Source of the DNA: Gibbula magus | Taxonomy: Eukaryota; Mollusca; Gastropoda; Trochida; Trochidae | DNA length: 64,000 nt | Direction of reading: 5' to 3' | NCBI GenBank assembly: GCA_936450465.1 | Contig: OW388293.1 | Span: 83,970,134 to 84,034,133, forward strand | In this document: positions 2,959 to 55,081 of the stretch, one piece after another | Layout of the letters: the number at the start of each line of letters is the position of its first letter | How positions within the stretch are numbered: the stretch's first letter is position 1 | Notes under the pieces: model-generated | The model's input: the letters and a program-made list of their open reading frames with translations, nothing else | What the model was told of the DNA's origin: nothing | Database searches by the model: none | Translations under genes and position numbers: made by a program

Positions 2959-4598
2959 ATACAGTAACATGAAGCCATGGTTAGCCGAGGATTGTTTACA
3001 TAATGATTATAGTTTATAGGATGGTAACATTAAGCCATAGTTAGCCGATAATTGTTTACATAATGAATATAGTTTATAGGATCGTTACATTAAGCCATGG
3101 AGGATTGTTTACATAATGAATATAGTTTATAGGATCGTAACATTAAGCCATGTAGGATTGTTTACATAATGAATATAGTTTATAGGATCGTAACATTAAG
3201 CCATGGAGGATTGTTTACATAATGAATATAGTTTATAGGATCGTAACATTAAGTCATGGAGGATTGTTTACATAATGAATATAGTTTATAGGATCGTAAC
3301 ATTAAGCCATGGAGGATTGTTTACATAATGAATATAGTTTATAGGATCGTAACATTAAGCCACGGAGGATTGTTTACATAATGAATATAGTTTATAGGAT
3401 CGTAACATTAAGCCATGGAGGATTGTTTACATAATGAATAAAGTTTATAGGATCGTAACATTAAGCCATGGAGGATTGTTTACATAATGAATATAGTTTA
3501 TAGGATCATCACACTAAGCCATGGAGGATTGTTTACATAATGAATATAGTTTATAGGATCGTAACATTAAGCCATGGAGGATTGTTTACATAATGAATAT
3601 AGTTTATAGGATCGTAACATTAAGCCATGGAGGATTGTTTACATAATGAATATAGTTTATAGGATCGTAACATTAAGCCATGGAGGATTGTTTACATTAT
3701 GAATATAGTTTATAGGATCATAACATTAAGCCATGGAGGATTGTTTACCTAATTGATATAGTTTATAGGATCATCACATTAAGCCATGAAGGATTGTTTA
3801 CATAATGAATATAGTTTATAGGATCATAACATTAAGCCATGGAGGATTGTTTACATAATGAATATAGTTTATAGGATCATAACATTAAGCCATGGAGGAT
3901 TGTTTACATAATGAATATAGTTTATAGGATCGTAACATTAAGCCATGGAGGATTGTTTACATAATGAATATAGTTTATAGGATCATAACATTAAGCCATG
4001 GAGGATTGTTTACCTAATTGATATAGTTTATAGGATCATCACATTAAGCCATGGAGGATTGTTTACATAATGAATATGGTTTATAGGATCATAACATTAA
4101 GCCATGGAGGATTGTTTACATAATGAATATAGTTTATAGGATCCTAACATTAAGCCATGGAGGATTGTTTACATAATGAATATAGTTTATAGGATCGTAA
4201 CATTAAGCCATGGAGGATTGTTTACATAATGAATATAGTTTATAGGATCGTAACATTAAGCCATGGAGGATTGTTTACATAATGAATATAGTTTATAGGA
4301 TCATAACATTAAGCCATGGAGGATTGTTTACCTAATTGATATAGTTTATAGGATCATCACATTAAGCCATGGAGGATTGTTTACATAATGAATATAGTTT
4401 ATAGGATCATAACATTAAGTCATGGAGGATTGTTTACATAATGAATATAGTTTATAGGATCGTAACATTAAGTCATGGAGGATTGTTTACATAATGAATA
4501 TAGTTTATAGGATCGTAACATTAAGCCATGGAGGATTGTTTACATAATGAATATAGTTTATAGGATCATAACATTAAGCCATGGCTAGCCGAGGATAG
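2959..4598 (+). repeat. 53-bp satellite, about 31 tandem copies
   Basis: Head-to-tail monomers of 53 bp, each containing TTAAGCCATGGAGGATTG, TTTACATAATGAATATAG and TTTATAGGATC. Most copies differ by only one or two bases. Variant monomers with TTTACCTAATTGATATAG followed by ATCATCACATTAAG recur at about 3,747, 4,011 and 4,329, that is five and six monomers apart, showing a higher-order layer of duplication. The outermost monomers at both ends are longer and carry an extra TTAGCCGA/CTAGCCGA block lost from the interior units, so the array probably grew from a longer ancestral monomer. Confidence 0.95.
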
Positions 4599-4927
4599 AG
4601 TGTGTAATGTACAGCAACTCATTCTCTTTCCAAAGAGGTTACTCAGTTTTTATTTTATCGTAGCCTCTGGTATATTTAAGCTACTTTTTCGGCTAGAAAT
4701 GGTAAGCTCTGTTTTTAGGCTAATTTCACGGCTTGGAATGGAGAAACCTGATTAATTGCATCCGAAGTTAGTTGTGGAGAAAGCGACCTTGTTTTAAACT
4801 GAATATTCGGTGATTCAAAACGACTAGAGTTCTAGCATCTGTGCAATATGCACTTATTGTTTACAAGACAAAATTAGGTCGCAGATTTAAAACTATGTTT
4901 GATTGGACAAAGATAAGGGAATGACCA

Positions 4928-5188
4928 GTGTCACAAACGATCACCGTCAGGGAACTTAGCGAGAATACTGAAATATCGCCTAAATATAACAGAGGTTACC
5001 ATATAACATCTGAAGGAAAGAGGATGATAGTAAATAGGATCAGAACATTAAGCCATGAGAAACCAAGAATAAACAACATTCAGTCACAGGTAGACCAGTG
5101 TATAACAGATTATGTAACAATTATAGTATATTGGACCGTGTCGCCGATGATTGAGGTTATTTTTATAGGAAAATTGTCTATAAAATAG
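4928..5188 (+). other. Open frame over decayed satellite; probably not a gene
   Basis: This 86-codon frame opens with GTG, not ATG. It contains a diverged monomer of the neighbouring satellite (AAATAGGATCAGAACATTAAG around 5,033-5,055). No domain, signal peptide or splice context is seen. Best read as an eroded outlier of the array. Confidence 0.45.
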
Positions 5189-5189
5189 T

Positions 5190-6925
5190 TCAGACGGTCA
5201 CTATTTAATGTCAGGTGAACTACAGTTATCACTTAAACCGTCAGCTCCCAACTATAGAATTTATCGGAAACCCTCCTTCTGAGTTGCAGTGGTGCTAGTG
5301 AGCCAAGGGGCGAGCCCACCTTCAAACAGCACAGAGCAGCTGGCAGGAGGGTGTAAATGTAGCAACAGGAACCTGGACTACAAGACTGCTCTAGGCGACC
5401 AGGATAAAGACTCACTCTGCAAGTGGGTCGTCACTGAATAAACATAAACTGATTATGGTTGTACACCTGCACTAGCAAACTTAAACATTTGTTTTGTAAG
5501 TAAAAGTCTAAGGCATGAATGACAATACTTTCTTAGATATCCGATTTATCTGTTGGTTAAGGTCCACAGCGTTGTTTGACCAGCACTTAATCTGGGCAGT
5601 ACAAACTGATATGTACATACAAATCTATAGCACGGACTGACCATCAGTTACTCTACGGAGTATAAATAATCTGAAAGTAAGTTTTAAAGTATGGTTGAAC
5701 CAGCACTTAATCAAGGAACTTATTTATTTTGCCTTGAAAGGCGTATTAAACTCGGTTAAATTTAGAGATTTAAAATAAAATTATGATCAAATTGAAATAC
5801 GGATTCAAGCGAAATATCTTTGCATGAATATGAATGTTGTTGCTGATATTGGTTGGTTGAAGTAAATTAGTTAGCGACATAATCTCAGTATACTTTGATA
5901 CATTTCGTCACAATAGAAGAAGTAAGGTCACACATGTCACTCAAATACCTATATGAGCACCCGTGTTTCTTTGTAATGCACATGTACAATGCACAATAAG
6001 AATAAAATGCTTTCTCTACCAGGTTCGGAAGCATGATACAAGAGTGTTTAAACGCTTGCGATCCCGAGATTGCCGACATGCTTAGCGTCGCCCTTATGAA
6101 GAATCCTTGTGAGTTTCAATACCAATAAATCATAAATGTAATTAACACCCGCCAAAGTTTCAACACCCATAGATAATATTTTATACATAATAGACAGACA
6201 AAACCCCCCAGAATAAACTGATTCTGGTCATGTCAAAACTATACATTATTGTGCTAATGATATAATATAATATATATAAAAGAGAGTGAAGTCATAGCAA
6301 GGAACAACATTGAAAAACTTCATTCCAAGTTGAATAAACATGCTAAATGCTCACATAGATGAATTGCTTTAGGCAACAAATTGTCTCCAAAATATGAAAC
6401 ATAAGTAACGAATTGTCTGTTTCATGATACATTTCTAGTTACGATGTTATGAGAGGAACACTCATTTTGTTATAATCCATATATTCCCAATATTTATAAT
6501 TGCTTGACTCTGTTCAGGATGGCAAGAACATTGCATATGTACCAGTATCGCTCAATACGTTACATGTCACTAAATATTTGATACCATAACCAACTCTGTT
6601 ATTTCGCGTGGAGCTGAATCATTGGAAGATGATCGGTTTAAATAAGTGGCATTTATATAATGTTTTTTAAATGTTAAACTGTCCACTTCAGATCAATATA
6701 TGTTTTATTCATATCCTGCTATTCATGCATTCAACATGCTCATGTAAAAGATGAAATGTAGCCATTGCCTTTTCGTATCCACTACAAAGGAGGTAAACTA
6801 ATTATAAGAATGAAACATAGACAAAGGTACTTCCGCAATCCTGTACCTGTTATAAACACTACATTCATATAATGATGATACACTAGTTAAGACACACTCT
6901 TGCCGAAAGGAAATAGTTTTCTTTT
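5190..6925. other. Gene-poor stretch
   Basis: AT-rich sequence without a recognisable domain, RNA or mobile-element hallmark. Confidence 0.4.
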
Positions 6926-6929
6926 AGTA

Positions 6930-7075
6930 TTTATGTGGCAGGGTGAGATCAAAGTTTTTCTACCGACTTCGGCTAGTGGGATATTCCTTTATCTCAACTG
7001 GTAGAGGTCAGGACTTTCACCAGATTCCCACTGGAGGTGATCTCACAATCGCCTCTGTTACATTCACATACACAT
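6930..7075 (+). mobile_element. tRNA-derived SINE-like fragment
   Basis: The segment around 6,990-7,030 reads like the D-arm and anticodon arm of a tRNA (TCTCAACTGGTAGAGGTC followed by AGGACTTTCACCAGA). It lies in a body that begins with GGCAGGGTGAGATCAAAG and ends near a repeat of the GTGATCTCAC motif. The T-arm B box is degenerate, so this is a SINE relic rather than a working tRNA. The boundaries are approximate. Confidence 0.4.
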
Positions 7076-7258
7076 GGAACTTGACCCATTTAGAATGAGT
7101 CACCTTTATCTTTATACATTCTCATAATAATAACATTCAATAGCGTTTACAGTAACACGTACCATCTTAACTGAGAAATATACCGCTGCATCCAGTGTTG
7201 AATTCTACCACTGTGATGAATATACCGTAGTGTGAGTGCTGTTGGGTGTATGTTGCAG

Positions 7259-7388
7259 GTGTGTCGTGTGGAGCAGTGCGGCTTCTCACCTCCCTCCTGT
7301 GTGTCCTCCTCCCCACCCTGCACGTGCTGCTATAGATGCACGGTCGAGGATCGGACCCGAGAAGAAAGAGTCGATGTGCAAAAATGAA
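7259..7388 (+). CDS. Possible terminal exon of a cysteine-rich peptide (weak)
   Basis: After an acceptor-like TTGCAG, one frame reads through 43 residues with seven cysteines (C-x4-C-x6-C-x6-C-x-C-C-x2-C) followed by an acidic/basic tail and a TGA near 7,387. The GC content and cysteine density are unlike the flanks, and the spacing resembles small secreted cysteine-rich peptides. The other two frames are also partly open, and the exon phase (0) does not match the candidate exon at 195-234. A fortuitous GC-rich patch cannot be excluded. Confidence 0.22.
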
Positions 7389-7651
7389 ATCATCCTCAGT
7401 AAACTCCAGGATATACGTTCCGATTAATCTCTATTTCTACACGTGTACCCAAAGTTCATCTCCGACTAGGTCCGATAATTTTATAATTTTTTAATGAAAT
7501 AGCTTCAGCTAGCCAAACGATTATGTCTTTAAACAAGTTTATCCGAGAGGGATCTACGAGCGTTACTGAATAATCGAGGGAGTGAGCCATGTTGGAAGCC
7601 CTTTAATTGTTGATCTCAGCTTCCCCCATGTACACACCCATTAGATATATA

Positions 7652-7657
7652 CCACTC
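7652..7657. repeat. Target-site duplication, left copy (CCACTC)
   Basis: Six bases directly outside the left TIR, identical to 16,077-16,082. Read directly from the sequence. Confidence 0.9.
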
Positions 7658-7857
7658 TGTTGTATAGGGAGGGGTTGTGGAATTTTAGGTCGGCCATTTT
7701 GTTTTTTAAAATAGCCTTGACATGACCTTTAAGTGACCTTTAATTAAGGTAGAAGGTGACCTTTAGGTCACCTGTACCCTCGCACATGTTATGTAGCTGA
7801 CCTTTGATTAATGGGGGTTCAAGTGACCTTTAGGTCACCTGTACCTTCACACATGAA
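7658..7857 (+). repeat. Left terminal inverted repeat, 200 bp
   Basis: Reverse complement of 15,877-16,076 with no mismatch that I could find. It contains a TGACCT direct pair (TGACCTTTAAGTGACCT) and two everted TGACCT-TT-AGGTCA palindromes. The first has full 9-bp arms, AGGTGACCTTTAGGTCACCT at 7,754-7,773, and the second is near 7,821-7,841. A third copy lies just inside the TIR near 7,862-7,881. These repeated dyads are plausible binding sites for the integrase or for host factors. Confidence 0.95.
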
Positions 7858-9890
7858 ATGAAGGTGACCTTTAGGTCACCTGTACCCTCTCGTGTGACTT
7901 GAGGTAACTTTGATTTGACAGGTGTGATCAATAACTTGAATGAAAATATTTTACAAGTTTTAACTATTTTGATTAAGAGCTTACTTAATGTTTTGATTAA
8001 GGTTTTTGATTTCTATCCATACTAATTCATAATTCATACAACAACATTTTACAGAAGTGTTTAAAATTGCCTGAAGATAACCGAGATGTCATTGACCAGT
8101 GGTCAGTAAGTGTAGAAATGCCGACGGAAGTGAACAGGATATAACATCTCAAGTACTCCTTCAGTTTGACCAGTCCCTATACTGAGCAGGAAGTTAGCAT
8201 GAGCTTTCTGTACGTGCATACACATCAACATTGATTCAATATTCAATCTGAAATAAAAGACTTGCACTCAGTCTGCGCTATTCTATATGGATACATATTG
8301 GGAACACATACTGACCATAATATGATAATAAAACAATAAAATCAACATTTTTCTTAAAAACTGAGAGTGACCCGGAACATGTTTTAAAAGTCTGGAATAA
8401 TGTAATGTTTTACTCCTATGTTAGTGACAAGAATGAAGGATAAAATATACCATATGACAAATCAATGTGCCATTTGTAGCTCTATTTGTAGATTTATTTG
8501 TAACTGTATTCATATTCATTCAAAAGGAGTTTTGGGGGAGAAAAGGACACAAAGCTTGATACGATAATATCAAAGTGAAGGACAATAATCAAGTCTATCA
8601 TTTGCCATTTAGCTGCTTACAAACCCATGGGGAGGGCAACACTGACACACTGAAACCTCAGTAGCCATTTCCTTAATTACATAATGCGTTCTTATGCGCC
8701 CAGATAAGAATGTGGCACAAGATTCATATAAATGAGCATACTTATAATACCCTAGACTTTGCACAAGTTTGCTTGAAAATGTCATTTACAAGTGATTAGC
8801 GATATGCTTTATTCTAAAACATTCAATTACTACATTTGCTCTAACATTTCTAGAAAAATGTCACTTTATTGGGGTGGGTACGCAATATTGTTATGGATTT
8901 GTTATGAGAGTAAGGTCTAAATATTTCTGACAATACAATCATTTTACATTATACATCTTTCATGTTTTCATTAAGATGAGAGACAAAGATGTGATCAACA
9001 TATAAACCTAAAAGTAGGCACATCCTGTCTGTGGTAAATTGTTTAGACAGGTGACCTTTTGGCCCGTCACAAACATTTTCAACTAACATACTTAAGTAGG
9101 AACATCCTGTTTTTTTGGTAAAAATATGACAGGCAGGTAGCTGGACTTTTGACCTGTCACAAAAATAGAATAACCTAAAAGTGGGCACATCCTGTCTATG
9201 GTAAATTGTTTAGACAGGTGGCCTTTTTCACCTGTCATCAACAGATGTCCTTAAGTAGACACATCCTGTATCACAGAAAAATATAGTCAGTTGACCTTTA
9301 GACCCTATCAAAAACACCTATAAAAGCCCATGCTTTCCCACAATGTTCATTTGTAAATCGTGGATTTTTTAATAATGTTGTATTAATTACCAGACTCTAC
9401 ATATTTTATAAATTATGTTAAATAATTTGTTTCCATATATTTTATAATACAGAGTGGTGTAAAATATTTAGTATCAAATATAATATTTATTTAATGTGTA
9501 CATCACAAGTTGAAGCTGCCAGCTTCTTAATGAATCTTCATCTTACAATTAAAATGTGTGAGAATGACCGGCCATCATTAATGACTTATTTGTTGAGGAG
9601 ATAATGAGGCAGCCGAGTGGTCACTCAAAGAGGTGTTCATCCTATTCAAACCAACAGTATAGTGGTCAAGTAGTTAATGAGAGCCAATTAGTAACCGGGC
9701 CATAAGCCTGTGTATGGGTGAACTGCTTGAGTAACAACTACTCAAATACTTCACACTTGAGTGATTCTCACTGGGGGCGGTCAAGATATTTCACTGTTGA
9801 TGGGGGTTCTATTACATCTAGCGGACCCTTTAAGGGATATGAGAGAGAGATGATGTATTATCTCTGAAAGAGTGTTCAAGTAGTGAAAGT
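7858..9890. other. Gene-free left part of the 8.4-kb element
   Basis: About 2 kb inside the element without a credible gene. It holds a third copy of the TIR dyad just inside the TIR and the 80-bp repeat array at 8,995-9,310. In related virus-like elements this space would be expected to hold capsid or polymerase genes. Its emptiness is a real oddity of this copy or family. Confidence 0.6.
8995..9310. repeat. Four diverged ~80-bp tandem repeats inside the element
   Basis: Each unit holds CATCCTGT preceded by a TAAGTAG/AAAAGTGGG-type block and followed by a TAGACAGGTGACCTTTT or similar segment and CCTGTCA. The CATCCTGT motifs lie near 9,021, 9,103, 9,187 and 9,262 (spacing 82, 84, 75). The units repeat the CAGGTGACCTTT theme of the TIR. 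A short minus-strand frame over the array (8,949-9,188) is a by-product of the repeats. Confidence 0.8.
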
Positions 9891-9893
9891 TTG

Positions 9894-10364
9894 TTAGTAA
9901 GGATTGTTTCGATTTGTTTGGCAAGTTAACATAGTTACATGCTGGGACAGTTGGTGAATGTTTAACAGGGTAAATTGGAATAACTTGGAATAAATTGAAA
10001 GTATTGTTTCAAGACAATGTGTGTATGTTATTGTAGTATTATTTGATGAAATATTGATAAATCGCATACAAACAGAGTGTATGTAAGAGTTAACACATTC
10101 ATGTATTTTAAAAATTGTCTCAATTGTACAATAACTAAGTAACCATCTGTTCAGTGAGTGTGTGAATGTATCACTTATAACAGGGTTGGCTACTTTTACT
10201 ACAGGAAGAAAAATCCCATCATCCAAGTGTTTGTAAAACTGAAATCTGGCACTGTACTGAAATTCAGTGTAGTATTTCATGCAAACTTTGCAGTGTGTAG
10301 AACAGTTGTTTAAACCAAGACATTTCAAAACGTTTATGTCATGAGTATCATAAGAAAATAACAA
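9894..10364 (-). CDS. Unrecognised ORF at the 3' end of the element gene block
   Basis: A 156-codon frame lying downstream of the ATPase gene, on the same strand. The first ATG in it is near residue 29 (starting MKYYTEFQYSARF), because the upstream limit is a TTG. It is rich in Cys, His and Tyr in its first half (CSTHCKVC), with no signal peptide and no domain I recognise. The length is more than expected by chance but not decisive in AT-rich DNA. It could be the tail of a decayed gene or a genuine small element gene. Confidence 0.35.
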   Translation of the reverse strand: MLFSYDTHDINVLKCLGLNNCSTHCKVCMKYYTEFQYSARFQFYKHLDDGIFLPVVKVANPVISDTFTHSLNRWLLSYCTIETIFKIHECVNSYIHSVCMRFINISSNNTTITYTHCLETILSIYSKLFQFTLLNIHQLSQHVTMLTCQTNRNNPY

Positions 10365-10393
10365 ATAATAAACTAGAATACAACATCAAACAT

Positions 10394-10401
10394 TTTTTAT
10401 T
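10394..10401 (-). terminator. Polyadenylation signal for the ATPase gene
   Basis: AATAAA on the minus strand (TTTATT on the plus strand within a T-run near 10,394-10,401), about 65 bp after the ATPase stop codon. Confidence 0.55.
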
Positions 10402-10464
10402 AGCCCTGTTTCAATGAGCAGATTTTAGGATAAGGAGCACTCCTATAAATCTGCTTTACAACGT

Positions 10465-12147
10465 CTATTGGCTTTCATCTTCATCCTCCGATACCTCACT
10501 CTCGTCATCAGATAGCGTTTCGTCGTCATCATCAATTAAATCTTCTATCCAAGATTTATATTTGTACAATTTAGAAAACACAGTGTGATATATATCATTG
10601 GTGTCTTCTACTTGATTCAAAAGTTCTTGTGTCTTTGGTCCCCATTGCAAATAGTGCAGATACATAATAAAGTGTGCATACATTTCTTTAAAAGCTCTCC
10701 ATGTTAACTTCTTCAGTTTATCATCTATCATTTCTTCAGTGAGACCTCTTTTCAAATAAAGTTGTCTTTTCTCTTCCAAAAAGTCTTTATTTTCCTCACG
10801 TACACTTTTATACATTTGTCTTATTCCTTGCTCCTCAAGATCACCTGCTTTCTGTGGTTTATCAGCATGGTTTGTAACACTATCATCATCATCGTCGTCA
10901 TCAGTAGCATTTTCCATTTCAGGACATTGTTTATCATGGAGATGTCTCTGCAAGTTATGACTATTACTGAACATTTGCCCACAATAAACACAATCCTCCA
11001 TTTGACGTGGCTTTTTCACAGTAATGAAATCCTCTTCCAATTTTCTTTTCATTCTCCCATCAGGTAATCCAGGAGGACTCTGTCTATAGCCTCCACTCTC
11101 TGGACACCAATTTTTTCTATGTTTTTGCAGATCAGAATGGTCCTGAAATACTATTCCACAATCATCACAGGAAGGCATGTTTGAGAGGTAATTTTCACAA
11201 GTCAGCACTCTGTGGAGATTTCGCTCCAAATGAATCTCTTTGGGGTTGTGTTCTCTTTTAATACTAAATACATTAGGACAGAGCCGATCAGAGTTGGGAG
11301 TAAATGGTTTAAGGTCGACAAGCAAATACCCATACGGTTTTTGAGTAGCCAACTGAAATTGATCCATGAAAAGGTGAGATCGGGTTGGATACATTTGCCT
11401 TGCTAAAGTCATGATAGGTTGTTGATCCACTGGATTGTTAAAAAGGATCAAATAGAGACAATTTCTCCGTTGTGTTGGGTCCCTATTATAGAAAAGGTTT
11501 TGATTGATGGCGATGACAGAGAGGTTGCGATGATGGGAACCTTCTGTAAATAGATCTGTTATGCGTGGGTCCTTACTCGCTGAACTCATTAGATCATCAA
11601 GAATGAGGACATTCACCATAGTAGGATCAAGAAAATCATCCTTTTCAAGGCCAGAAGGAATACCTTGGAAGAACTCAACATTTGGATAAACGTCTGTAAG
11701 AATTGTGTTGTACAAAGGCTGCCATCTCTTGTATAACCAGATAATTCGTTCTGGATATGGTTTAATCTTCATCCTCTCTAGAAACTGCTTCACTAATAAA
11801 CTTTTACCACTCGAAGTAGGCCCAGAAACTACCATTGTAAAGGGATGTAATAGCCTGAATTCTTCAGTCGAATGATGAGTAGCATCACGAGGAGGAGGAG
11901 GGCCATGAGGAGGGCCATGAGGAGTAGGAGGAGGGCCATGAGGAGGAGGAGGAGGAGGAGGAGGGCCATGAGGAGGGCCATGAGGGGACGGCGTCGGTAA
12001 TGGTTGCTGCCTGTAGTTGTCTGTCGTTGGCTGTGTATTTGTCTGTGACTGTGAATTTTCAAAAGCAGGTTTGTGTTTAGATCTCCTGTGTCTCAACATA
12101 TTGTCAGTTCTGGAAAAAACTTCCCCACACACTGGACACATCACCAT
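10465..12147 (-). CDS. Packaging-type (A32-like) ATPase with three C2H2 zinc fingers
   Basis: 560 residues from an ATG at 12,147. In order: a C2H2 finger (residues 4-25, CPVC...H...H); a proline/glycine/histidine low-complexity linker (50-86); an FtsK/HerA-superfamily ATPase with Walker A GPTSSGKS at 109-116, Walker B VLILDDL at 180-186, and the downstream HHRNLSVIAINQNLF block (205-219) typical of virus and Polinton packaging ATPases; two more zinc-finger motifs (327-348, CDDCG; 386-408, CVYCG); an Asp-rich run (416-422); and a helical C-terminal domain ending in an acidic tail. In the family this enzyme pumps viral DNA into a capsid. The fusion to fingers is unusual and suggests DNA-end or sequence recognition. 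The domain calls are confident; the packaging role is inferred from the family. Confidence 0.88.
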   Translation of the reverse strand: MVMCPVCGEVFSRTDNMLRHRRSKHKPAFENSQSQTNTQPTTDNYRQQPLPTPSPHGPPHGPPPPPPPPHGPPPTPHGPPHGPPPPRDATHHSTEEFRLLHPFTMVVSGPTSSGKSLLVKQFLERMKIKPYPERIIWLYKRWQPLYNTILTDVYPNVEFFQGIPSGLEKDDFLDPTMVNVLILDDLMSSASKDPRITDLFTEGSHHRNLSVIAINQNLFYNRDPTQRRNCLYLILFNNPVDQQPIMTLARQMYPTRSHLFMDQFQLATQKPYGYLLVDLKPFTPNSDRLCPNVFSIKREHNPKEIHLERNLHRVLTCENYLSNMPSCDDCGIVFQDHSDLQKHRKNWCPESGGYRQSPPGLPDGRMKRKLEEDFITVKKPRQMEDCVYCGQMFSNSHNLQRHLHDKQCPEMENATDDDDDDDSVTNHADKPQKAGDLEEQGIRQMYKSVREENKDFLEEKRQLYLKRGLTEEMIDDKLKKLTWRAFKEMYAHFIMYLHYLQWGPKTQELLNQVEDTNDIYHTVFSKLYKYKSWIEDLIDDDDETLSDDESEVSEDEDESQ

Positions 12148-12163
12148 GTTGACAGTTCAATGG

Positions 12164-12169
12164 TTTATT
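12164..12169 (-). terminator. Polyadenylation signal after the 123-aa gene
   Basis: AATAAA on the minus strand, 35 bp beyond the stop at 12,204 and just before the ATPase start. It supports separate transcription units rather than one polycistron. Confidence 0.5.
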
Positions 12170-12203
12170 TCAAACTAACTTTATAATTTGGTGTTGTTGG
12201 TAG

Positions 12204-12575
12204 TTAAAATATTGTTTTCATTCGTTTTCTTGGACCTCCTCTCACTTTGATTTCCTTTGACTGTTTTAAATTTGCCTGTACTCTTTTTTCCTGAGCTTGG
12301 GCTTGCTCCACGACGTGTTGTGTAGGGGAGATAAAGTTGAGTTTGGGTTGCTCAGAATAAGGCATGGTCAGTGCCTGTTCTTTTCGTTTCCTTTCTTCCA
12401 AAATTTTAGGCCACTCGGGATCGTACAGCTCCAATGTTCTGTCCACAGACATTATACCCTGCTGTTCCCCACCTCTCATGACAAAATTATATGGTTTCAG
12501 TTTACCCTGGACTTGTAACATATAATAACGAGTCCATTTCTCAGTGTCCGGGACAAATAGTTTGTATTGACTCAT
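12204..12575 (-). CDS. Small basic-tailed element protein, unknown function
   Basis: 123 residues from the first ATG (MSQYKLFVPDTEKW), chosen because the longer frame begins at TTG. The start follows CATCACC, a good context. The first half is mixed; the second half is charged and glutamine-rich (EQAQAQEKRVQANLKQSKE, probable helix or coiled coil). The C-terminus is strongly basic (GGPRKRMKTIF), as in DNA-binding core or virion proteins. It lies between the structural-like small genes and the ATPase. I do not recognise a family. Confidence 0.7.
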   Translation of the reverse strand: MSQYKLFVPDTEKWTRYYMLQVQGKLKPYNFVMRGGEQQGIMSVDRTLELYDPEWPKILEERKRKEQALTMPYSEQPKLNFISPTQHVVEQAQAQEKRVQANLKQSKEIKVRGGPRKRMKTIF

Positions 12576-12648
12576 GGTGATGCGTTCAGTTTGAATGTTC
12601 TTAAGCAAATGAGGTTAGTCATTATCTCGACCTATTATATATAATTTT

Positions 12649-13035
12649 TTAACCAGTAGCTCTGGCCCATAGTTCACTCATGGTCAAAGCTTCATGTCTA
12701 ACTTCAGGCAGATATTTTAGAATGAATGATATCAGAGGTGTATTTTGAATTAAGAGCCATTTCCGTACATCATCTGTGGTGACAGGGTCAGCCAAACGTG
12801 TCAGTACTATTAAATAGTTATTATTTGAATTGTGTTGAAGATATCGTCTTCTTTCGTGTTGTGTTACAGTAATGCGACCATCTAATAAGCGTCGAATAAT
12901 GGAGATCAAGGCTAACATTTGCTCACGATTCATCTCCATAATTTCTTCTATTGTGTATTCATAGTCATGAAATAAAACAAGACTCTGTAGAAAATCATAA
13001 TGTCTCAATACATAACGAGCCATTCTCAAAACCAT
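12649..13035 (-). CDS. Small element protein, unknown function
   Basis: 128 residues from ATG 13,035 (MVLRMARYVLRHYDF), or 124 from the second ATG at 13,023. The longer form overlaps the stop of the preceding gene by 10 bp. The protein is rich in Leu, Arg and Tyr and predicted helical, with no Cys, no signal peptide and no known domain. The tight packing with the 13,026-13,448 gene and shared orientation mark it as part of the element's core block. Confidence 0.68.
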   Translation of the reverse strand: MVLRMARYVLRHYDFLQSLVLFHDYEYTIEEIMEMNREQMLALISIIRRLLDGRITVTQHERRRYLQHNSNNNYLIVLTRLADPVTTDDVRKWLLIQNTPLISFILKYLPEVRHEALTMSELWARATG

Positions 13036-13448
13036 AAGGGGAGGGGTTTCAAGTGCAGGGTTACTGTGACTGGTCCAGTAATAAACGTAGCAGGTAGACC
13101 TCCTTTGTCTGCGATAGTAATATCCGTTATGGTGAGATCTCGTACTTTCATAGGAACATATTGGTACCTATTGAAAACAAATGATTTTTCATTGTTGAAA
13201 GAAAGACGTCTTAGTAAGGGTTCTTGATTTTCTCCCACATAAGTTGAATCACAGATGGAAGAGTATACATAAATCTCTTTGAATGTTTTGTTTCTTGTCA
13301 CACTGCCAAGACTGATTTCAGTGAGTGCTACCATCCATGGATGATCAAATTGTAACGGTTCATTCAATTGAACTCTAAAGCAATAAGGTTTGTTGTCAGG
13401 ATATCTGTCTTTACTGTCAGTGCTACGTAAAATCATGTATTTATCCAT
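13026..13448 (-). CDS. Small beta-rich element protein, possible minor structural protein
   Basis: 140 residues from ATG 13,448 (MDKYMILRSTDSKDRYPDN); the longer frame begins at GTG. Residues 20-46 contain a motif of the form FRVQLNEPL...HPWMVALTEISL. That resembles a short conserved motif (F-x-V-x-L ... W-x-V-A-L-x-E-I) that I associate with other integrase/ATPase virus-like elements of invertebrates. The protein is predicted mostly beta-strand and ends in LHLKPLPLWF. A single jelly-roll (penton-like) fold is a guess. It sits between the membrane protein and the 128-aa protein. Confidence 0.68.
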   Translation of the reverse strand: MDKYMILRSTDSKDRYPDNKPYCFRVQLNEPLQFDHPWMVALTEISLGSVTRNKTFKEIYVYSSICDSTYVGENQEPLLRRLSFNNEKSFVFNRYQYVPMKVRDLTITDITIADKGGLPATFITGPVTVTLHLKPLPLWF

Positions 13449-13450
13449 TG

Positions 13451-13699
13451 TCACTTTTGAGATTTTATTTTAGGATTCGGCAAAAGATAGCCAAGACTAC
13501 TACTCAACAATGCTGTCCATAAATTTGAATTTCCTTTTTCCAAGGACAAATTTACAATACAAGTAATAATCACTATGTAAATAATGATGATTTGAGAGAA
13601 AAACACTGTTTCGTTTTTGACCCCCGTTTTCCCAAGAAAACTCCAGGATTCACCTGATCTACTGCGTGCAAGAGGTTGTGCCTCAATGACTTCTTCCAT
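13451..13699 (-). CDS. Small single-pass membrane protein of the element
   Basis: 82 residues from ATG 13,699. An N-terminal soluble stretch (MEEVIEAQPLARSRSGES) is followed by a strongly hydrophobic segment (residues 34-52, SQIIIIYIVIITCIVNLSL), then a C-terminal block LWTALLSSSLGYLLPNPK. The last block resembles a motif I have seen in cnidarian and mollusc element ORFs (SS-x-L-G-Y-L-L-P-x-P-K), a recollection that needs a search. The stop lies 2 bp before the next start codon. A virion-membrane or release role is possible but not shown. Confidence 0.66.
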   Translation of the reverse strand: MEEVIEAQPLARSRSGESWSFLGKTGVKNETVFFSQIIIIYIVIITCIVNLSLEKGNSNLWTALLSSSLGYLLPNPKIKSQK

Positions 13700-13719
13700 C
13701 CTTATGACTATGAATTAAC

Positions 13720-13725
13720 TTTATT
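13720..13725 (-). terminator. Polyadenylation signal after the integrase gene
   Basis: AATAAA on the minus strand 9 bp after the integrase stop and 21 bp before the start of the membrane-protein gene. Confidence 0.5.
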
Positions 13726-13733
13726 TTCTTCTT

Positions 13734-14855
13734 TTATAGGATCTGATACTGCTTCATATCTTTCTCTAGAATCCATGAGTTATATTTCTTAGGCCAATGT
13801 AACCATTTTATTAATACTTCTTTTCGTTTGTTTCGTGTTCTCTTTTTAACTATGTCTTGTATTCTGTATTCTTCATCCGGATTTTCAGTAACTCGTTGAA
13901 GTTCAGCGGCATAGAATGAACCTTCAATAGGATCTCCTCCCCAATCTTTTAGCTTGTACAAGTCATTGTCTTGAGACCAATAGTGTCTTGTTATAGTAAA
14001 TATTTCACCACTCCATTTCTCTTGATACTCCCTATCAAATTTTCCTTTCAAATGACTTATGCGAACTTTATCTCCTACTTTAAATGTAAATCTTTGTTTT
14101 GTGTTCTTCTTTGTTGATTTATGCTGTTTGTTTTTGACCAAATATTGAGAGAGTCTGACTTCATCTGCGTTGTGATGGTTGACACTGGCAGGAGACTGTC
14201 CTAATGAACTGTGCTTAGTATTATTGTAGCTCTTGACAACTTCCTGTAAGATATTCATATAGTTATAGGTGAAATGTTTCAACATATATCGGTACAGTTT
14301 CATTTTAATGGTTTTAATGACTCTCTCCGCATAAGGAGCTTTGGTTTCATTCAGGGTAAAAAGTTGGGTTACATGATGTTTCTTTAGAAAAGCTTTCAAC
14401 CATTGATTCTTAAATTCTGAACCCATATCGGATTGAAATATACTTGGATGACGATCTTGTCTTTCCCATAAGTCTGTCAAGGCTTTTACCACTTCTTGAC
14501 CTTTAGTAGACTTGAGTGGATAGACCCATAGATAGCGTGAAAATAAATCGATAATAACTAACAAATATTTGACACCATCATTATACTTGGCCAATGAAAC
14601 CATATCGATAAGATCTGATTGCCAATGGCTATCAATACCTTCCACAACATATGTGTTTCTTGGAAACTTTCGTTTAACCTGATGTGTCATGGTGTAGATC
14701 TCTTGACCTTTCAACCATTTCCTGATGCGATGTAAACCAATCTTAAGCTGACCATTAGCTTTCACAGCTTCGTATAACTTCTTGGGTCCTGCATAACTAC
14801 CAGGATGTTTTGGATCATAATAAATCTTGCTCAAGTACTCTTCCCAAGGAGCCAT
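13734..14855 (-). CDS. DDE integrase with C-terminal chromodomain
   Basis: 373 residues from ATG 14,855 (MAPWEEYLSKIYYDPKHPG); the longer frame begins at TTG. Residues 10-60 form the N-terminal region typical of the Polinton/F54H12.3-like integrases (YYDPKHPGSY, then a KLYEAVK helix) rather than an HHCC finger. The RNase-H-fold core carries the triad D81 (HWQSDLID), D143 (QSDMGSEF) and E177 (NETKAPYAERVIKT). A small SH3-like part (KVGDKVRISHLKGKF) and a chromodomain (about 330-373, with VLIKWLHWPKKYNSWI) follow. It would cut and join the element ends; the 6-bp duplication outside fits this class. All catalytic residues are present. Confidence 0.93.
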   Translation of the reverse strand: MAPWEEYLSKIYYDPKHPGSYAGPKKLYEAVKANGQLKIGLHRIRKWLKGQEIYTMTHQVKRKFPRNTYVVEGIDSHWQSDLIDMVSLAKYNDGVKYLLVIIDLFSRYLWVYPLKSTKGQEVVKALTDLWERQDRHPSIFQSDMGSEFKNQWLKAFLKKHHVTQLFTLNETKAPYAERVIKTIKMKLYRYMLKHFTYNYMNILQEVVKSYNNTKHSSLGQSPASVNHHNADEVRLSQYLVKNKQHKSTKKNTKQRFTFKVGDKVRISHLKGKFDREYQEKWSGEIFTITRHYWSQDNDLYKLKDWGGDPIEGSFYAAELQRVTENPDEEYRIQDIVKKRTRNKRKEVLIKWLHWPKKYNSWILEKDMKQYQIL

Positions 14856-14927
14856 ATTGGCCAAGTGATAATATTACTCTCATGATATTGTTTATATACA
14901 CAACAACAAACACACATTATATCTTAA

Positions 14928-14936
14928 TTTTTTATT
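14928..14936 (-). terminator. Polyadenylation signal after BIR-1
   Basis: AATAAA on the minus strand (TTTATT at about 14,931) some 85 bp after the BIR-1 stop. Confidence 0.45.
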
Positions 14937-15019
14937 CCATAATATTTATAAGGCATTAAAAAAGCAGTTATAACATTGGTCTTGAATGGATCCTTTACAT
15001 TCAGTTGATTAGAGTAACA

Positions 15020-15361
15020 TCAGTCCTTTTTTCCATCAGAGTTCATCTTATTATACCACTTTGGTCTTCCTACCATTCTAAGATAGTGACAATCTGGGGA
15101 CCTTTTCCCGTGTTCTACCCAGGGATCATCTGTAGACATCCATCCCTTAAGACGAACTTGACATTCGAAACATACACACAAGTCTCCTCTGTTCTGGTAC
15201 ACAAGTCCTGCATGAGCCATATCTTCAGCACTCTGCTTCATTTGAATTGGCCAGTTCTTAAATGAATCTAGTCTTTCCTCAAACAAACTCCAGTCACATT
15301 TAGGTTGCAATGCACAGCAATCAGTAAAAAAAGTCTCATCAGGACATCCACACACATCCAT
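15020..15361 (-). CDS. BIR-1: single-BIR inhibitor-of-apoptosis-like protein
   Basis: 113 residues from the conserved ATG (MDVCGCPDE). The frame stays open 11 codons upstream through FIRSDT, but without another ATG. One baculovirus-IAP-repeat domain spans about residues 28-95: RLDSFKNW, AGLVY, then the zinc ligands C-x2-C (CFEC), H (DDPWVEH) and C (SPDC). There is no RING or CARD, so it would act by binding caspases or IAP antagonists and not as a ubiquitin ligase. It is a tandem paralogue of BIR-2, about 109 bp away. Carrying such genes suggests suppression of host cell death during element or virus activity; that role is inferred. Confidence 0.87.
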   Translation of the reverse strand: MDVCGCPDETFFTDCCALQPKCDWSLFEERLDSFKNWPIQMKQSAEDMAHAGLVYQNRGDLCVCFECQVRLKGWMSTDDPWVEHGKRSPDCHYLRMVGRPKWYNKMNSDGKKD

Positions 15362-15469
15362 AGTATCAGAGCGAATAAACACACGTCTGTACACTTCTGA
15401 GTCTAATGGTAGAATGGCCTCCTATGATCAGGATTACACAAATAATTACCAGTTCATGTACAGAAAAGT

Positions 15470-15832
15470 TTATACCCTATTTGATTTCTGATAAATGTCC
15501 TTTCTCCTTACTATCCCCACCATACGTAAATAGTCACAGTCTGGCGACCACTTTTCGTGTTCCACCCAGGGGTCATCAGTAGACATCCATTCTTTGAGAC
15601 GAATACCACATTTGAAACAAATACACGAGTCTCCTCGGTGCTGATAAACAAGTCCTGCTTGAGCCAAATCTCTAGGATTTTGCTTCATTTGAATAGGCCA
15701 GTCCTTGAACGATTCAAGTCTTTTCTCAAAAGAAGTCCAATCAGAATGTACTGAAGATCCAGTACAATCAGCAACAACAGAGTTGTCAAGATAACCACAT
15801 ACATCCATAGTATCAGAGCGAATAAACAACAT
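15470..15832 (-). CDS. BIR-2: single-BIR inhibitor-of-apoptosis-like protein
   Basis: 120 residues from ATG 15,832 (MLFIRSDTMDVCGY), or 111 from the internal ATG shared with BIR-1. The BIR domain has RLESFKDW, AGLVYQHRGD, CFKC, DDPWVEH and SPDC, so all four zinc ligands are present. The FIRSDTMDVCG segment is shared with BIR-1, arguing that the longer start may be used or that a conserved leader was duplicated. It is the outermost gene, starting 45 bp inside the right TIR. No RING domain. Confidence 0.87.
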   Translation of the reverse strand: MLFIRSDTMDVCGYLDNSVVADCTGSSVHSDWTSFEKRLESFKDWPIQMKQNPRDLAQAGLVYQHRGDSCICFKCGIRLKEWMSTDDPWVEHEKWSPDCDYLRMVGIVRRKDIYQKSNRV

Positions 15833-15876
15833 GACTTAACAGTTCAATGTCTAGAAGCACACTAAGCATTCACCAG

Positions 15877-16076
15877 TTCATGTGTGAAGGTACAGGTGAC
15901 CTAAAGGTCACTTGAACCCCCATTAATCAAAGGTCAGCTACATAACATGTGCGAGGGTACAGGTGACCTAAAGGTCACCTTCTACCTTAATTAAAGGTCA
16001 CTTAAAGGTCATGTCAAGGCTATTTTAAAAAACAAAATGGCCGACCTAAAATTCCACAACCCCTCCCTATACAACA
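15877..16076 (-). repeat. Right terminal inverted repeat, 200 bp
   Basis: Matches the left TIR in inverted orientation. It begins 45 bp beyond the start codon of the outer BIR gene, so it probably also holds that gene's promoter. Confidence 0.95.
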
Positions 16077-16082
16077 CCACTC
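16077..16082. repeat. Target-site duplication, right copy (CCACTC)
   Basis: Six bases directly outside the right TIR, identical to 7,652-7,657. Confidence 0.9.
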
Positions 16083-33925: not shown

Positions 33926-34892
33926 AAGAAGACAAATATTTATGGATGATCAACTTCTTTATTAACAATAGCGACGTTTCGGTATAGATCCTTATACCGT
34001 TATCAAGCATATGGGAGAGATGATAAAATCAGAGGTTATATACATGAAACATTTTTTGGTATGATAATGGGATAACAAAGACAACAAGATGAGATAACAA
34101 TAAGATGAAAGCTGTAACAAGCAGGTAGTGATAACATGGATACCAGTGGAAGGTAAGTTAATTAAGTTGGGATGGGGATACAATGCAGCAGTGAGGGTGA
34201 GCAATCAGTGGAGGATAATGAAGGAAGCCAGAGTGAGTAGAGTGGATTAATTATTTGTGGATTAAGTGGTTGTAAGCTGATGGGATGAAATAGCCTTGAT
34301 CTCTATTCAAAGAGGGGTTATGTCTCAAAATTTGTAAAGCTTCAGATAAACGGCGGTGGGTGTAATCATGTTTGTTGTTTGTGAGTGTTTTGACAGCGTC
34401 CCAATTGATGTTGTGTTGTGGAAATTTGGTGATGTGTTCTGAAATGGCTGATTTGTTGTCTGCCTTGATTGTGGATGTTTTGTGTTCTTTGATGCGTATG
34501 TTGAGTGGTCTGGCTGTTTCCCCAATGTAGTTACTGCCACAGTTGCAGCTGATGTTGTAAACTACGCCTTTAGGTTGTTGTTTAGCTGTGGAGTGTTTCC
34601 TACCATTAGCCCTAATGATGGTTTTGAGTGGGGTGGCCGTGGAGAAGTATGTGTCTATGCCTACTTGCTGCTTGAGTAGGCGGCTGATGTGATGTGAAGT
34701 TTTACCAATATAGGGTAGTGGGATGCGAATGGGGGCAGGGGTAGGCTTGGTAGTAGTAGGTTTAGGTGCTGGATTTTTAGTGCGGTTGATGACACGGTCA
34801 ACAAGATGAGTTGGGTAATTGTTGAGTTGGGTGAAGACATGCCGTAGGTGATTTAGTTCGGAGTCAGGGGAGTCAGAGGATAGGTTGATAGC
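33926..34892 (-). repeat. Penelope inverted repeat, 3' arm
   Basis: Pairs base for base with 36,532-37,498 (both 967 bp) as far as checked. It includes the coding end of the ORF and a hammerhead-like motif at 33,973-34,007. Confidence 0.93.
33973..34007 (-). ncRNA. Hammerhead-ribozyme-like motif, 3' arm copy
   Basis: Mirror copy of 37,417-37,451 within the inverted repeat, in the sense orientation of the element. Confidence 0.5.
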
Positions 34893-36521
34893 ACGGCGGG
34901 TTAGAGTGGAGATGATGCCGGATTTAGTTCTGAGTGGGTGGTTTGAGTCAAAGTGGATGTACTGGTCAGTGTGCGTGGGTTTGCGGTAAACAGAGGTTTG
35001 GATGGTATTGTTAGGTGTGCGAGTAACTAGGACGTCAAGGAATGGAAGTTGTGAGTCGGTTTCAGTTTCGAAGGTGAATTGGATACGAGGGTGTTGTTGG
35101 TTGAGGTGTTGGAGGAGTGCAGTGGGGTCGTTATTTGAAGGGAGTATGACAAAGGTGTCGTCAACCTTCCTGAACCAGCAGGTTGGTTGGATTAGTGAGG
35201 TGCTGAGGGCATGCTGTTCAAAAGAGGTCATATAGATTTCAGAGAGGATGGGAGAGAGAGGGGATCCCATGGGTAGACCATGGATTTGCTCATAGAGGTC
35301 ATCACCCCAGGTGAAGTAGGTGGAGGTGATGGAGTTAGAGATGAGCTGAACGATGGAGTCAGTAGTGAGGTTAGTGTCCAGGGGGGTGTCAAGGTTGTCA
35401 ATGCGATGGCGGAGGATGTGCAGGGTTTCATTAATGGGAACACTAGTAAACAGATCCACAACATCATAGCTAACAATTTGTCCTGGGGTAGTAACACATT
35501 TAAGTTTTTGACAGAATTCAGCAGAGTCTGATATATATGAGTCAGCAGTTTTGCCAAGCGGGGCCAGCACTTTGGTGAGGTGTTGGGCAGTGTTGTAGAA
35601 CACTGTGTCCCGGGAACATACTAAGAGTCTAGATTTAGGTGGGTCCTTGTGAATCTTAACGGTGGCACGTGCATATGGGGCTTGGGGATGAGAGACACAC
35701 AGTTTTTGATGGAGTTCGTGGCTGATCTCATAGTTGTCTCGGAGTTGTTTCAGGTGGGATTTATGTTGTCTCTGAAGCTTCTGGGTCGGGTCTTTCTTGA
35801 TTTTCTGGTATGTGGTAGTGTCGTCCAGGATTTTGTTGACCATGGTCTCAAAGTCGGGCGTGTTGAGGACCACAGTAGCCTTCCCCTTGTCAGCAGGAAC
35901 TATGGTGATGGAGTCATCTCTTCGTAGATCGGCGAGGGCTTGCTTCTCTTCTTTGGAGATGTTCGGTTGTTGTGGTTTGGACTTGTGCAGTATATCCGCT
36001 ATCTGGTGACGTAGGAAGTCGACGTTGCCACCTGGTGCAAGTTGCTGGAGGCCCTTTTCTATGTTGACGATGAAGTCATCATGGTTGCGTTGGGGCTGGG
36101 TCGGAACGAACTTCAGTCCTCTGGATAGTACGCTGATCTGGGGTTGTGTGAGTTCCTTGTCACTGAGGTTGACCACTGTTTTCTTCAGATATTCAGATTT
36201 GTTGTGGCGTTGGATATTGCGATCGGCTGGCTTGGGCTTGAGCAGTTCAAGTTTCTTCAGGTGGGTTGTCTTGGTCTTGGAGTCTAGCTGGTTGTTGCAC
36301 TTGATCTGGGCAGCACGGAGGGATGAGAAGGTGTCGGCGTCAAGAGAGGTGCTGAGGGTATCTAGGTGGTCGGTGATGTTGTTGAGGGTGATGGCCTTGG
36401 CTTTCCGGTGATGTCTAATGCGCTCCTTCACTAGAAGTTTGGAGGCAGTCTGGAGGATAGATCTGGCTGCAGGTGAGTTGACAGGTGTTGAGAGTTTGAG
36501 GCCCTTCGGGATGATGTCAAC
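34251..36521 (-). CDS. Penelope reverse transcriptase with GIY-YIG endonuclease (5' truncated)
   Basis: A single frame of about 756 codons, 726 from the GTG at 36,431. The N-terminal part carries the Penelope signature LSRGLKFVPT. The RT core has YDVVDLFTSVP, GLPMGSPLSP and VDDTF (catalytic Asp pair). The C-terminus has the GIY-YIG nuclease (GVVYNISCNCGSNYIGETAR and RIKEH), with the CxC linker typical of this class. The enzyme would nick target DNA and prime reverse transcription there. No internal stop or frameshift was found over 2.2 kb, but the start is missing, so this copy is probably not autonomous. Confidence 0.92.
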   Translation of the reverse strand, partial: VDIIPKGLKLSTPVNSPAARSILQTASKLLVKERIRHHRKAKAITLNNITDHLDTLSTSLDADTFSSLRAAQIKCNNQLDSKTKTTHLKKLELLKPKPADRNIQRHNKSEYLKKTVVNLSDKELTQPQISVLSRGLKFVPTQPQRNHDDFIVNIEKGLQQLAPGGNVDFLRHQIADILHKSKPQQPNISKEEKQALADLRRDDSITIVPADKGKATVVLNTPDFETMVNKILDDTTTYQKIKKDPTQKLQRQHKSHLKQLRDNYEISHELHQKLCVSHPQAPYARATVKIHKDPPKSRLLVCSRDTVFYNTAQHLTKVLAPLGKTADSYISDSAEFCQKLKCVTTPGQIVSYDVVDLFTSVPINETLHILRHRIDNLDTPLDTNLTTDSIVQLISNSITSTYFTWGDDLYEQIHGLPMGSPLSPILSEIYMTSFEQHALSTSLIQPTCWFRKVDDTFVILPSNNDPTALLQHLNQQHPRIQFTFETETDSQLPFLDVLVTRTPNNTIQTSVYRKPTHTDQYIHFDSNHPLRTKSGIISTLTRRAINLSSDSPDSELNHLRHVFTQLNNYPTHLVDRVINRTKNPAPKPTTTKPTPAPIRIPLPYIGKTSHHISRLLKQQVGIDTYFSTATPLKTIIRANGRKHSTAKQQPKGVVYNISCNCGSNYIGETARPLNIRIKEHKTSTIKADNKSAISEHITKFPQHNINWDAVKTLTNNKHDYTHRRLSEALQILRHNPSLNRDQGYFIPSAYNHLIHK

Positions 36522-55065: not shown

Positions 55066-55081
55066 AATATGAGCCAGACGG

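What the first reader, a model, noticed from the sequence alone, without database searches (positions are those of the whole stretch)
7652..16082. Complete virus-like element with exact ends but no recognisable polymerase or capsid
The sequence shows 200-bp TIRs with no mismatch found, TG...CA termini and a 6-bp CCACTC duplication around a coherent set of minus-strand genes. The integrase and packaging-type ATPase point to the Polinton/adintovirus world, but polymerase B, protease and a known capsid are missing and the termini are retroviral/Ginger-like. This mix may be an undescribed lineage, or a satellite that uses another element's replication and capsid.
Basis: partly seen in the sequence, partly recalled or inferred. 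Interest (0 to 1): 0.95.

Follow-up and report, generated by a model that had tools for sequence, protein, structure and literature searches.

The report
Probable satellite of a mollusc polintovirus
An 8.4-kb virus-like element in an animal (probably mollusc) genome shares its ends, integrase and penton gene with a resident 19-kb virus-like element that has the polymerase and capsid genes, but carries its own conserved DNA-packaging-type ATPase instead, so it looks like a small viral satellite that depends on the larger one.

Summary
The element is real: 203-bp perfect TIRs (7658-7860/15874-16076) and the duplication CCACTC. It is not an orphan. The same genome holds 18.9-19.3-kb elements with the same TIRs, 97-99% identical over an end block of about 1.7 kb and 99.3-99.6% over 3.8 kb at the other end. 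Between these they carry a capsid gene (double jelly-roll fold, modelled on a 63%-identical homologue), adenain-type protease, A32-type ATPase and a PolB frame of about 1,720 aa.

The window element is no plain deletion of them: it has a 2.9-kb module (about 9350-12275) with a 560-aa zinc-finger ATPase, 37% identical to the long form's. This ATPase was scored at 78 places, none within 20 kb of 72 PolB places. A second, diverged lineage has the same short gene set. ATPase dN/dS between lineages is 0.19-0.34. The 140-aa protein is a penton by fold.

Best reading: an integrating satellite using a resident polintovirus for replication and major capsid, while supplying its own ATPase and, in fuller copies, integrase and penton. 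Dependence and packaging are inferred.

The parts
7652..7657 (.). target-site duplication CCACTC, left
7658..7860 (+). left TIR, 203 bp, exact inverted copy of the right TIR
   Evidence: shared with the long copies
7861..9352 (.). non-coding end block, 97-99% identical to the long copies
9353..10464 (.). non-coding part of the short-form-specific module (128-aa ORF 9894-10280 inside it is not supported as a gene)
10465..12147 (-). 560-aa ATPase: N-terminal C2H2 finger, Pro-rich linker, P-loop ATPase core (residues about 96-294), further C2H2 fingers, acidic C terminus
12204..12575 (-). p123: N-terminal ~100 aa shared with long-form p161, different C-terminal tail; the short-form module starts within this gene (~12275-12370)
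12649..13035 (-). p128, shared with the long form, function unknown (core protein is a guess)
13026..13448 (-). p140, penton-like single jelly-roll protein
13451..13699 (-). p82, small protein with a hydrophobic stretch, shared with the long form
13734..14855 (-). rve integrase with C-terminal chromodomain, 373 aa, identical to that of the long copy on C6
15020..15361 (-). BIR-domain (IAP-like) protein 1
15470..15832 (-). BIR-domain (IAP-like) protein 2, a duplicate (79% over 228 nt)
15874..16076 (-). right TIR
16077..16082 (.). target-site duplication CCACTC, right

Best explanation
The element is an integrated satellite of a resident polintovirus (Polinton/Maverick-type dsDNA element). SHOWN: it has the same TIRs, end block, BIR genes, integrase and penton gene as the 19-kb long form; PolB, protease and major capsid were not found in it; it has its own zinc-finger ATPase, which is conserved under purifying selection and was never seen near PolB in this genome. 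INFERRED: when the long form is active, its PolB recognises the shared TIRs and copies the satellite; the satellite's ATPase (with p123) drives packaging of satellite DNA into particles built from the long form's major capsid; the integrase (own or supplied) inserts the copy, leaving a 6-bp duplication; the BIR proteins delay cell death, as the same genes presumably do for the long form.
For: Same TIR on 18.9-19.3-kb copies, sharing element positions 7-1701 (97-99%) and 4623-8425 (99.3-99.6%). Long copies encode a major capsid gene, Peptidase_C5 protease, Pox_A32 ATPase and PolB with an open frame of about 1,720 aa; the capsid family has a double jelly-roll fold. 0 of 99 ATPase560 rows (78 places) lie within 20 kb of any of 88 PolB rows (72 places); 62 of 78 ATPase places have p123 within 3 kb. 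Of 73 integrase places at >=69% identity, 8 lie near ATPase560, 35 near PolB, none near both. A second lineage (L032, L033; ATPase about 62% identical) has the same order BIR-INT-p82-p140-p128-p123-ATPase; 0 of the 15 ATPase560-bearing loci examined match MCP, PRO or the PolB C-terminal part within the stretch held. ATPase dN/dS 0.19-0.34 between its three groups at dS 0.45-1.6. The eight satellite ATPases used form one group (92/96) and the long form's ATPase is far off. Short copies without an intact integrase still have matched 6-bp duplications (L017, L019), which fits supply in trans.
Against: No particle, transcript or helper assay. The ATPase family is not satellite-only in other animals: a Bathymodiolus-associated contig has one next to PolB pieces (L001), and two Mytilus relatives carry an adenain-like protease domain (P0041, P0111), so the gene may derive from another autonomous lineage. 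My idea that p123 is satellite-specific throughout failed: its first 104 residues group by lineage (17 sites against 2 for the window/L032 comparison), only the tail goes with the short form. The close pair L031/L034 has dN/dS 1.3 (3 synonymous, 15 non-synonymous changes), and 25 of 78 ATPase places have a stop inside the matched stretch (my count of the list). Many p123 places (54 of 114 full-tail) had neither an ATPase560 nor a PolB match listed, partly because hit lists were capped; 22 of 73 integrase places are near neither PolB nor a full-tail p123, and 1 (C17:13185743) is near both, its p123 match being a borderline one ending at residue 119. The ends of the L032/L033 elements were not resolved, and the L033 TIR did not match the one long lineage-2 piece read.
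Confidence: 0.66

Rival explanations
1. A non-autonomous Polinton copy: internal deletion or recombination replaced the core, and the leftovers are mobilised in trans with no packaging or satellite life of their own. The ATPase is a passenger from another Polinton lineage.
For: Shared ends with the long form; many short copies lack integrase and penton; the ATPase family occurs beside PolB pieces or joined to a protease domain in other molluscs.
Against: ATPase560 is conserved across two lineages with dN/dS 0.19-0.34, and its divergence (dS 0.64-1.6 from the window copy) is as deep as that of the long form's own genes (0.50-1.66); 53 of 78 scored copies, the 10 best among them, have no stop in the matched stretch.
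Confidence: 0.2
2. An autonomous element of unknown replication that merely shares an end and integrase module with the long form by recombination.
For: Coherent gene set and exact ends; one ATPase, integrase and penton present.
Against: No polymerase or major capsid found; TIR and end blocks nearly identical to an element that has both.
Confidence: 0.06
3. A defence or interference element: ATPase560 and p123 act mainly to block the long form (host-beneficial), and spread is secondary.
For: ATPase560 is an alternative version of the helper's packaging-type ATPase (37% identical), as a competitor would be; short-form copies are numerous.
Against: Nothing here tests interference; 6-bp duplications and near-identical copies point to self-spread.
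Confidence: 0.08

Closest known systems
Polinton/Maverick (polintovirus), the 19-kb resident form
   Same: TIRs, 6-bp duplication, rve integrase with chromodomain, packaging-type ATPase, penton
   Different: In the window element PolB, protease and major capsid were not found; it is 8.4 kb instead of about 19 kb and has a different, zinc-finger ATPase
Adintoviruses (as described in PMC11071296; passages read)
   Same: Integrase with C-terminal chromodomain; adenovirus-like virion proteins in the long form
   Different: PolB OTU-like domain and hexon relationship were not tested; neither PolB nor hexon was found in the short form
Virophages such as mavirus
   Same: Small, integrating (mavirus), dependent on a larger virus; penton fold match to mavirus penton
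   Different: Virophages encode their own major capsid and protease (recalled; a passage of PMC10120064 names the cysteine protease among their core genes); here these are missing and the proposed helper is a polintovirus, not a giant virus
Phage satellites such as phage-inducible chromosomal islands (PMC6431247 passages)
   Same: Integrated, smaller than the helper, lack most structural genes, carry genes that could redirect helper packaging
   Different: No homology looked for or known to me; animal genome; capsid redirection not shown here
Ginger DNA transposons (recalled)
   Different: Virus-type ATPase and penton are present here

Membership tests
Autonomous Polinton/Maverick | rve-type integrase | tested here: met
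   (rve 1.8e-15, Chromo 1.4e-6)
Autonomous Polinton/Maverick | long TIRs and 6-bp target duplication | tested here: met
Autonomous Polinton/Maverick | protein-primed PolB | tested here: not met
   not found in the window element; present in the long copies
Autonomous Polinton/Maverick | adenain-like protease | tested here: not met
   not found here; Peptidase_C5 in the long copy
Autonomous Polinton/Maverick | double jelly-roll major capsid | tested here: not met
   not found here; the long-copy gene family folds as DJR (modelled on P0131)
Autonomous Polinton/Maverick | A32/FtsK-type ATPase | tested here: met
   37% identity to the long form's Pox_A32 ATPase; Pox_A32 itself just under cut-off (21.3 against 22.8 bits)
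Autonomous Polinton/Maverick | penton (minor capsid) protein | tested here: met
Helper-dependent satellite | cis ends shared with a competent element | tested here: met
   that the long form is competent rests on its open frames
Helper-dependent satellite | no replicase or major capsid of its own | tested here: met
Helper-dependent satellite | own genes kept by selection | tested here: met
   dN/dS 0.19-0.34 between ATPase groups; one close pair at 1.3 on 18 changes
Helper-dependent satellite | replication and packaging need the helper | not testable with these tools
   needs expression or infection data
[quoted passage not shown]
   definition read in PMC11071296
Ginger transposon | transposase-only element without virus genes (recalled) | tested here: not met
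   ATPase and penton present

The most novel reading that the evidence does not exclude
A long-lived class of polintovirus satellites in an animal genome. They hijack the replication and capsid of a resident Polinton by swapping in their own zinc-finger packaging ATPase (and a p123 with a changed tail), perhaps redirecting assembly to a genome half the size, in the manner of phage satellites. They have accompanied at least two long-form lineages and appear to outnumber them.
Probability: 0.4. Interest if true: 0.9.

Novelty: new variant of a known kind. Interest (0 to 1): 0.78.

Why it matters
If right, animal genomes carry a two-part virus system, helper and satellite, both integrated in one genome with open frames and almost identical ends. 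Whether polintoviruses form real particles is a long-standing question (recalled). A satellite kept by selection for a packaging-type ATPase would be indirect evidence that packaging happens, and the pair gives defined genes (ATPase560, p123, penton, major capsid) with which to test it.

Tried and rejected
Tried without result: ATPase search of IMG/VR with one sequence and with an alignment, no relative. GTDB genome contigs gave one locus, L001. The whole-genome count of the major capsid gene did not complete, nor was the count with the long form's ATPase.

Rejected: (1) that the long copies' PolB was broken, which I first thought from ORF lists cut at a locus end; one search gives an open frame of 1,721 aa. 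(2) That p123 as a whole is satellite-specific; the quartet count says otherwise. (3) That a more distant Polinton in the genome (L036/L039) carries ATPase560; its ATPase is of the short kind. L037 and L038, two further PolB places, were cut too short to tell the kind of ATPase. (4) ORF 9894-10280 as a gene: its only Pfam match is below cut-off, it is partial in 9 of the 10 other lineage-1 loci and not matched in L031-L034.

Rows dropped before a count: I entered 78 of 99 ATPase rows and 62 of 88 PolB rows; one search repeats the test with all 99 and 88, same result (0). In one search I took the 55 best-scoring integrase rows (of 112) as those of 69% identity or more, which left out weaker-scoring rows of that identity, and used 15 hand-picked p123 places; one search replaces it with 77 rows (73 places) at 69% or more and 114 p123 places.

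BLAST's default composition correction missed one true ATPase match (L031); found with it off.

Literature: in the listings (open-access PMC only; titles and abstract starts) I saw no report of a satellite of an animal Polinton. Passages only of PMC11071296, PMC10120064 and PMC6431247; PMC11071308 was searched for six terms, none present; all others seen only in listings.
Full report
OBSERVATION. The window holds an element bounded by 203-bp TIRs with no mismatch (7658-7860 and 15874-16076) and by CCACTC on both sides. The recognised genes lie on the minus strand: two BIR proteins, an integrase (rve, E 1.8e-15; Chromo, 1.4e-6), four small proteins (p82, p140, p128, p123) and a 560-aa ATPase with C2H2 fingers. 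No PolB, protease or major capsid was found in it.

HOST. The species was not given or determined. The genome has 1.47 Gb in 140 contigs. ATPase relatives are named from bivalves (Mytilus, Mya, Pinctada, Pecten, Ruditapes); the closest named capsid relatives are from gastropods (Gigantopelta, Haliotis), with bivalves and other animals further down. A mollusc is likely.

LONG FORM. A search of the genome with the TIR scored 40 of 202 candidates. Opposed TIR pairs on one contig give eight elements: the window copy; one of 8.4 kb (C8, L016); three of 18.9-19.3 kb (C6:78530411-78549288; C5:87202527-87221781; C15:47252255-47271166); and three of 5.7-6.9 kb (L017, L018, L019). A fourth long copy (C5, near 20.39-20.41 Mb) is indicated by TIR, PolB, p161 and integrase matches but was not read. 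Seven of the eight paired elements have matched 6-bp duplications, all different; the right end of L018 is damaged. The long copies share element positions 7-1701 with the window copy at 97.3-99.2% and 4623-8425 at 99.3-99.6%. The integrase, p140 and p128 proteins of the C6 copy are identical to those of the window.

What lies between differs. The long form has p161, a 432-aa capsid candidate, a Peptidase_C5 protease, p181, p109, a 309-aa Pox_A32-type ATPase and PolB, the last in an open frame of about 1,720 aa. The capsid family is the one annotated 'F54H12.2-like'. A model of its member P0131 (mean pLDDT 84), 63% identical to the long-copy protein, matches double jelly-roll capsids: grouper iridovirus 1.2e-15, Sputnik 2.3e-15, mavirus 2.1e-14.

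SHORT-FORM MODULE. Identity to the long form stops near window 9350 on one side and fades between about 12370 and 12275, inside p123, on the other. The 2.9-kb module between holds the tail of p123 and the ATPase. The ATPase is 37% identical to the long form's ATPase over the core. In a tree of 35 ATPase cores, the eight satellite copies used form one group (92/96) among mollusc and unnamed relatives, while the two long-form ATPases sit on a separate long branch.

GENOME-WIDE PATTERN. ATPase560 was scored at 78 places (99 matched stretches; 78 of 8,257 candidates scored); 53 of the 78 have no stop in the matched stretch, 25 do (my count of that list). p123/p161 was scored at 150 of 469 candidates. 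62 of 78 ATPase places have p123 within 3 kb. 0 of the 99 ATPase rows has any of the 88 PolB rows (72 places) within 20 kb. Of 114 p123 copies with the full tail, 59 have ATPase560 within 1.5 kb, 1 has PolB within 9 kb, 54 have neither listed; of 36 with the tail unmatched, 27 have PolB, 2 have ATPase560, 7 neither. Of 73 integrase places at 69% identity or more, 35 lie within 10 kb of PolB, 17 within 6 kb of a full-tail p123, 1 of these near both (C17:13185743; its p123 match ends at residue 119, so it is probably a long-form copy), 22 neither; 8 lie within 8 kb of ATPase560, none of these near PolB. Hit lists are capped, so copy numbers are lower bounds.

SECOND LINEAGE. L032 and L033 (ATPase about 62% and integrase about 80% identical to the window) have the same order: BIR, integrase, p82, p140, p128, p123, ATPase. 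L031 and L034 show only p123 and ATPase, plus an integrase remnant, with inverted repeats of 1.9 and 1.4 kb. A long element of a second lineage (L035, beside PolB at C8:41214398) carries ATP309, p109, p181, protease, capsid, p161, p128, p140, p82 and a broken integrase, with no BIR match. No match to MCP, PRO or the PolB C-terminal part was found in any of the 15 ATPase560-bearing loci examined; six of these (L021, L022, L024-L027) are 4.7-kb stretches only.

SELECTION AND AGE. dN/dS of the ATPase (NG86) is 0.21-0.24 for the window against L031/L034 (dS 0.64-0.75), 0.19-0.22 against L032/L033 (dS 1.4-1.6, near saturation) and 0.32-0.34 between L031/L034 and L032/L033 (dS 0.45-0.48). Close pairs are noisy: 0.22 to 0.55 against the window (L021 is identical), 0.37 for L032/L033 and 1.3 for L031/L034 on 18 changes. 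Long-form genes differ between the two long lineages at dS 0.50-1.66. The short form's own gene is therefore about as old as the split of the long lineages, with the caution that recombination can lower such values.

A CHECK THAT WENT AGAINST ME. I had read as showing that satellite p123 genes form their own group. Site patterns in the shared N-terminal part say otherwise: 17 sites support lineage grouping and 2 support short versus long form (window/L010/L032/L035); the other 15 combinations tried lean the same way (12-21 against 1-2). For integrase, p82, p140 and p128 the count is 192 to 0. So the shared genes follow lineage, as expected if short and long forms recombine or if the short form arose beside each long form. 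Only the p123 tail and the ATPase go with the short form.

MECHANISM. The shared TIRs and end blocks give the long form's polymerase something to recognise (inferred). Missing major capsid and protease must come from elsewhere, and the long form is the obvious source (inferred). The ATPase is of the packaging type by homology; the zinc fingers may let it choose its own DNA (inferred). 11 of the 15 ATPase560 loci examined lack most of the integrase within the stretch held, and L017 and L019 still have clean duplications, so integrase supply in trans is likely.

AGAINST A SIMPLE STORY. Relatives of ATPase560 occur beside PolB pieces in a Bathymodiolus-associated contig, carry an adenain-like protease domain in two Mytilus proteins, and are joined to an integrase in Mya gene models. 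The gene may thus have been taken from another autonomous lineage, and other species need study.

KNOWN OR NEW. Polintons, virophages and phage satellites are known. I saw no report of a satellite of an animal Polinton in the open-access listings named under Tried and rejected. I rate it a new variant of a known kind.

Noticed in passing
window 34251-36521 (-), 55073-56158 and 56125-57480 (+): Open frames matching reverse transcriptase (RVT_1; two of the three below cut-off); the last two match consecutive parts of the domain and may be one element split by a frame change.
   Followed up: partly
window 3051-4584: Tandem array of a 53-bp unit, 28.9 copies, 96% matches, with strong GC skew.
   Followed up: no
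window 7756-7913 and mirror at 15879-15978: Repeated palindrome-like motif GTGACCTTTAGGTCAC within and beside the TIRs; could be a recognition site for replication or packaging.
   Followed up: no
L036 (C11:44276000-44285900) and L039: A more distant Polinton in the same genome with PolB, integrase, short ATPase and a long (373-aa frame) relative of p140; part of L039 reads N.
   Followed up: partly
G000, PolB matches at 81-83%: 21 copies of a second long lineage, 14 with open frames of over 1,700 aa, suggesting recent activity.
   Followed up: partly
L001: Zinc-finger ATPase beside PolB pieces on a contig labelled as a Bathymodiolus symbiont; probably host DNA in a bacterial assembly.
   Followed up: partly
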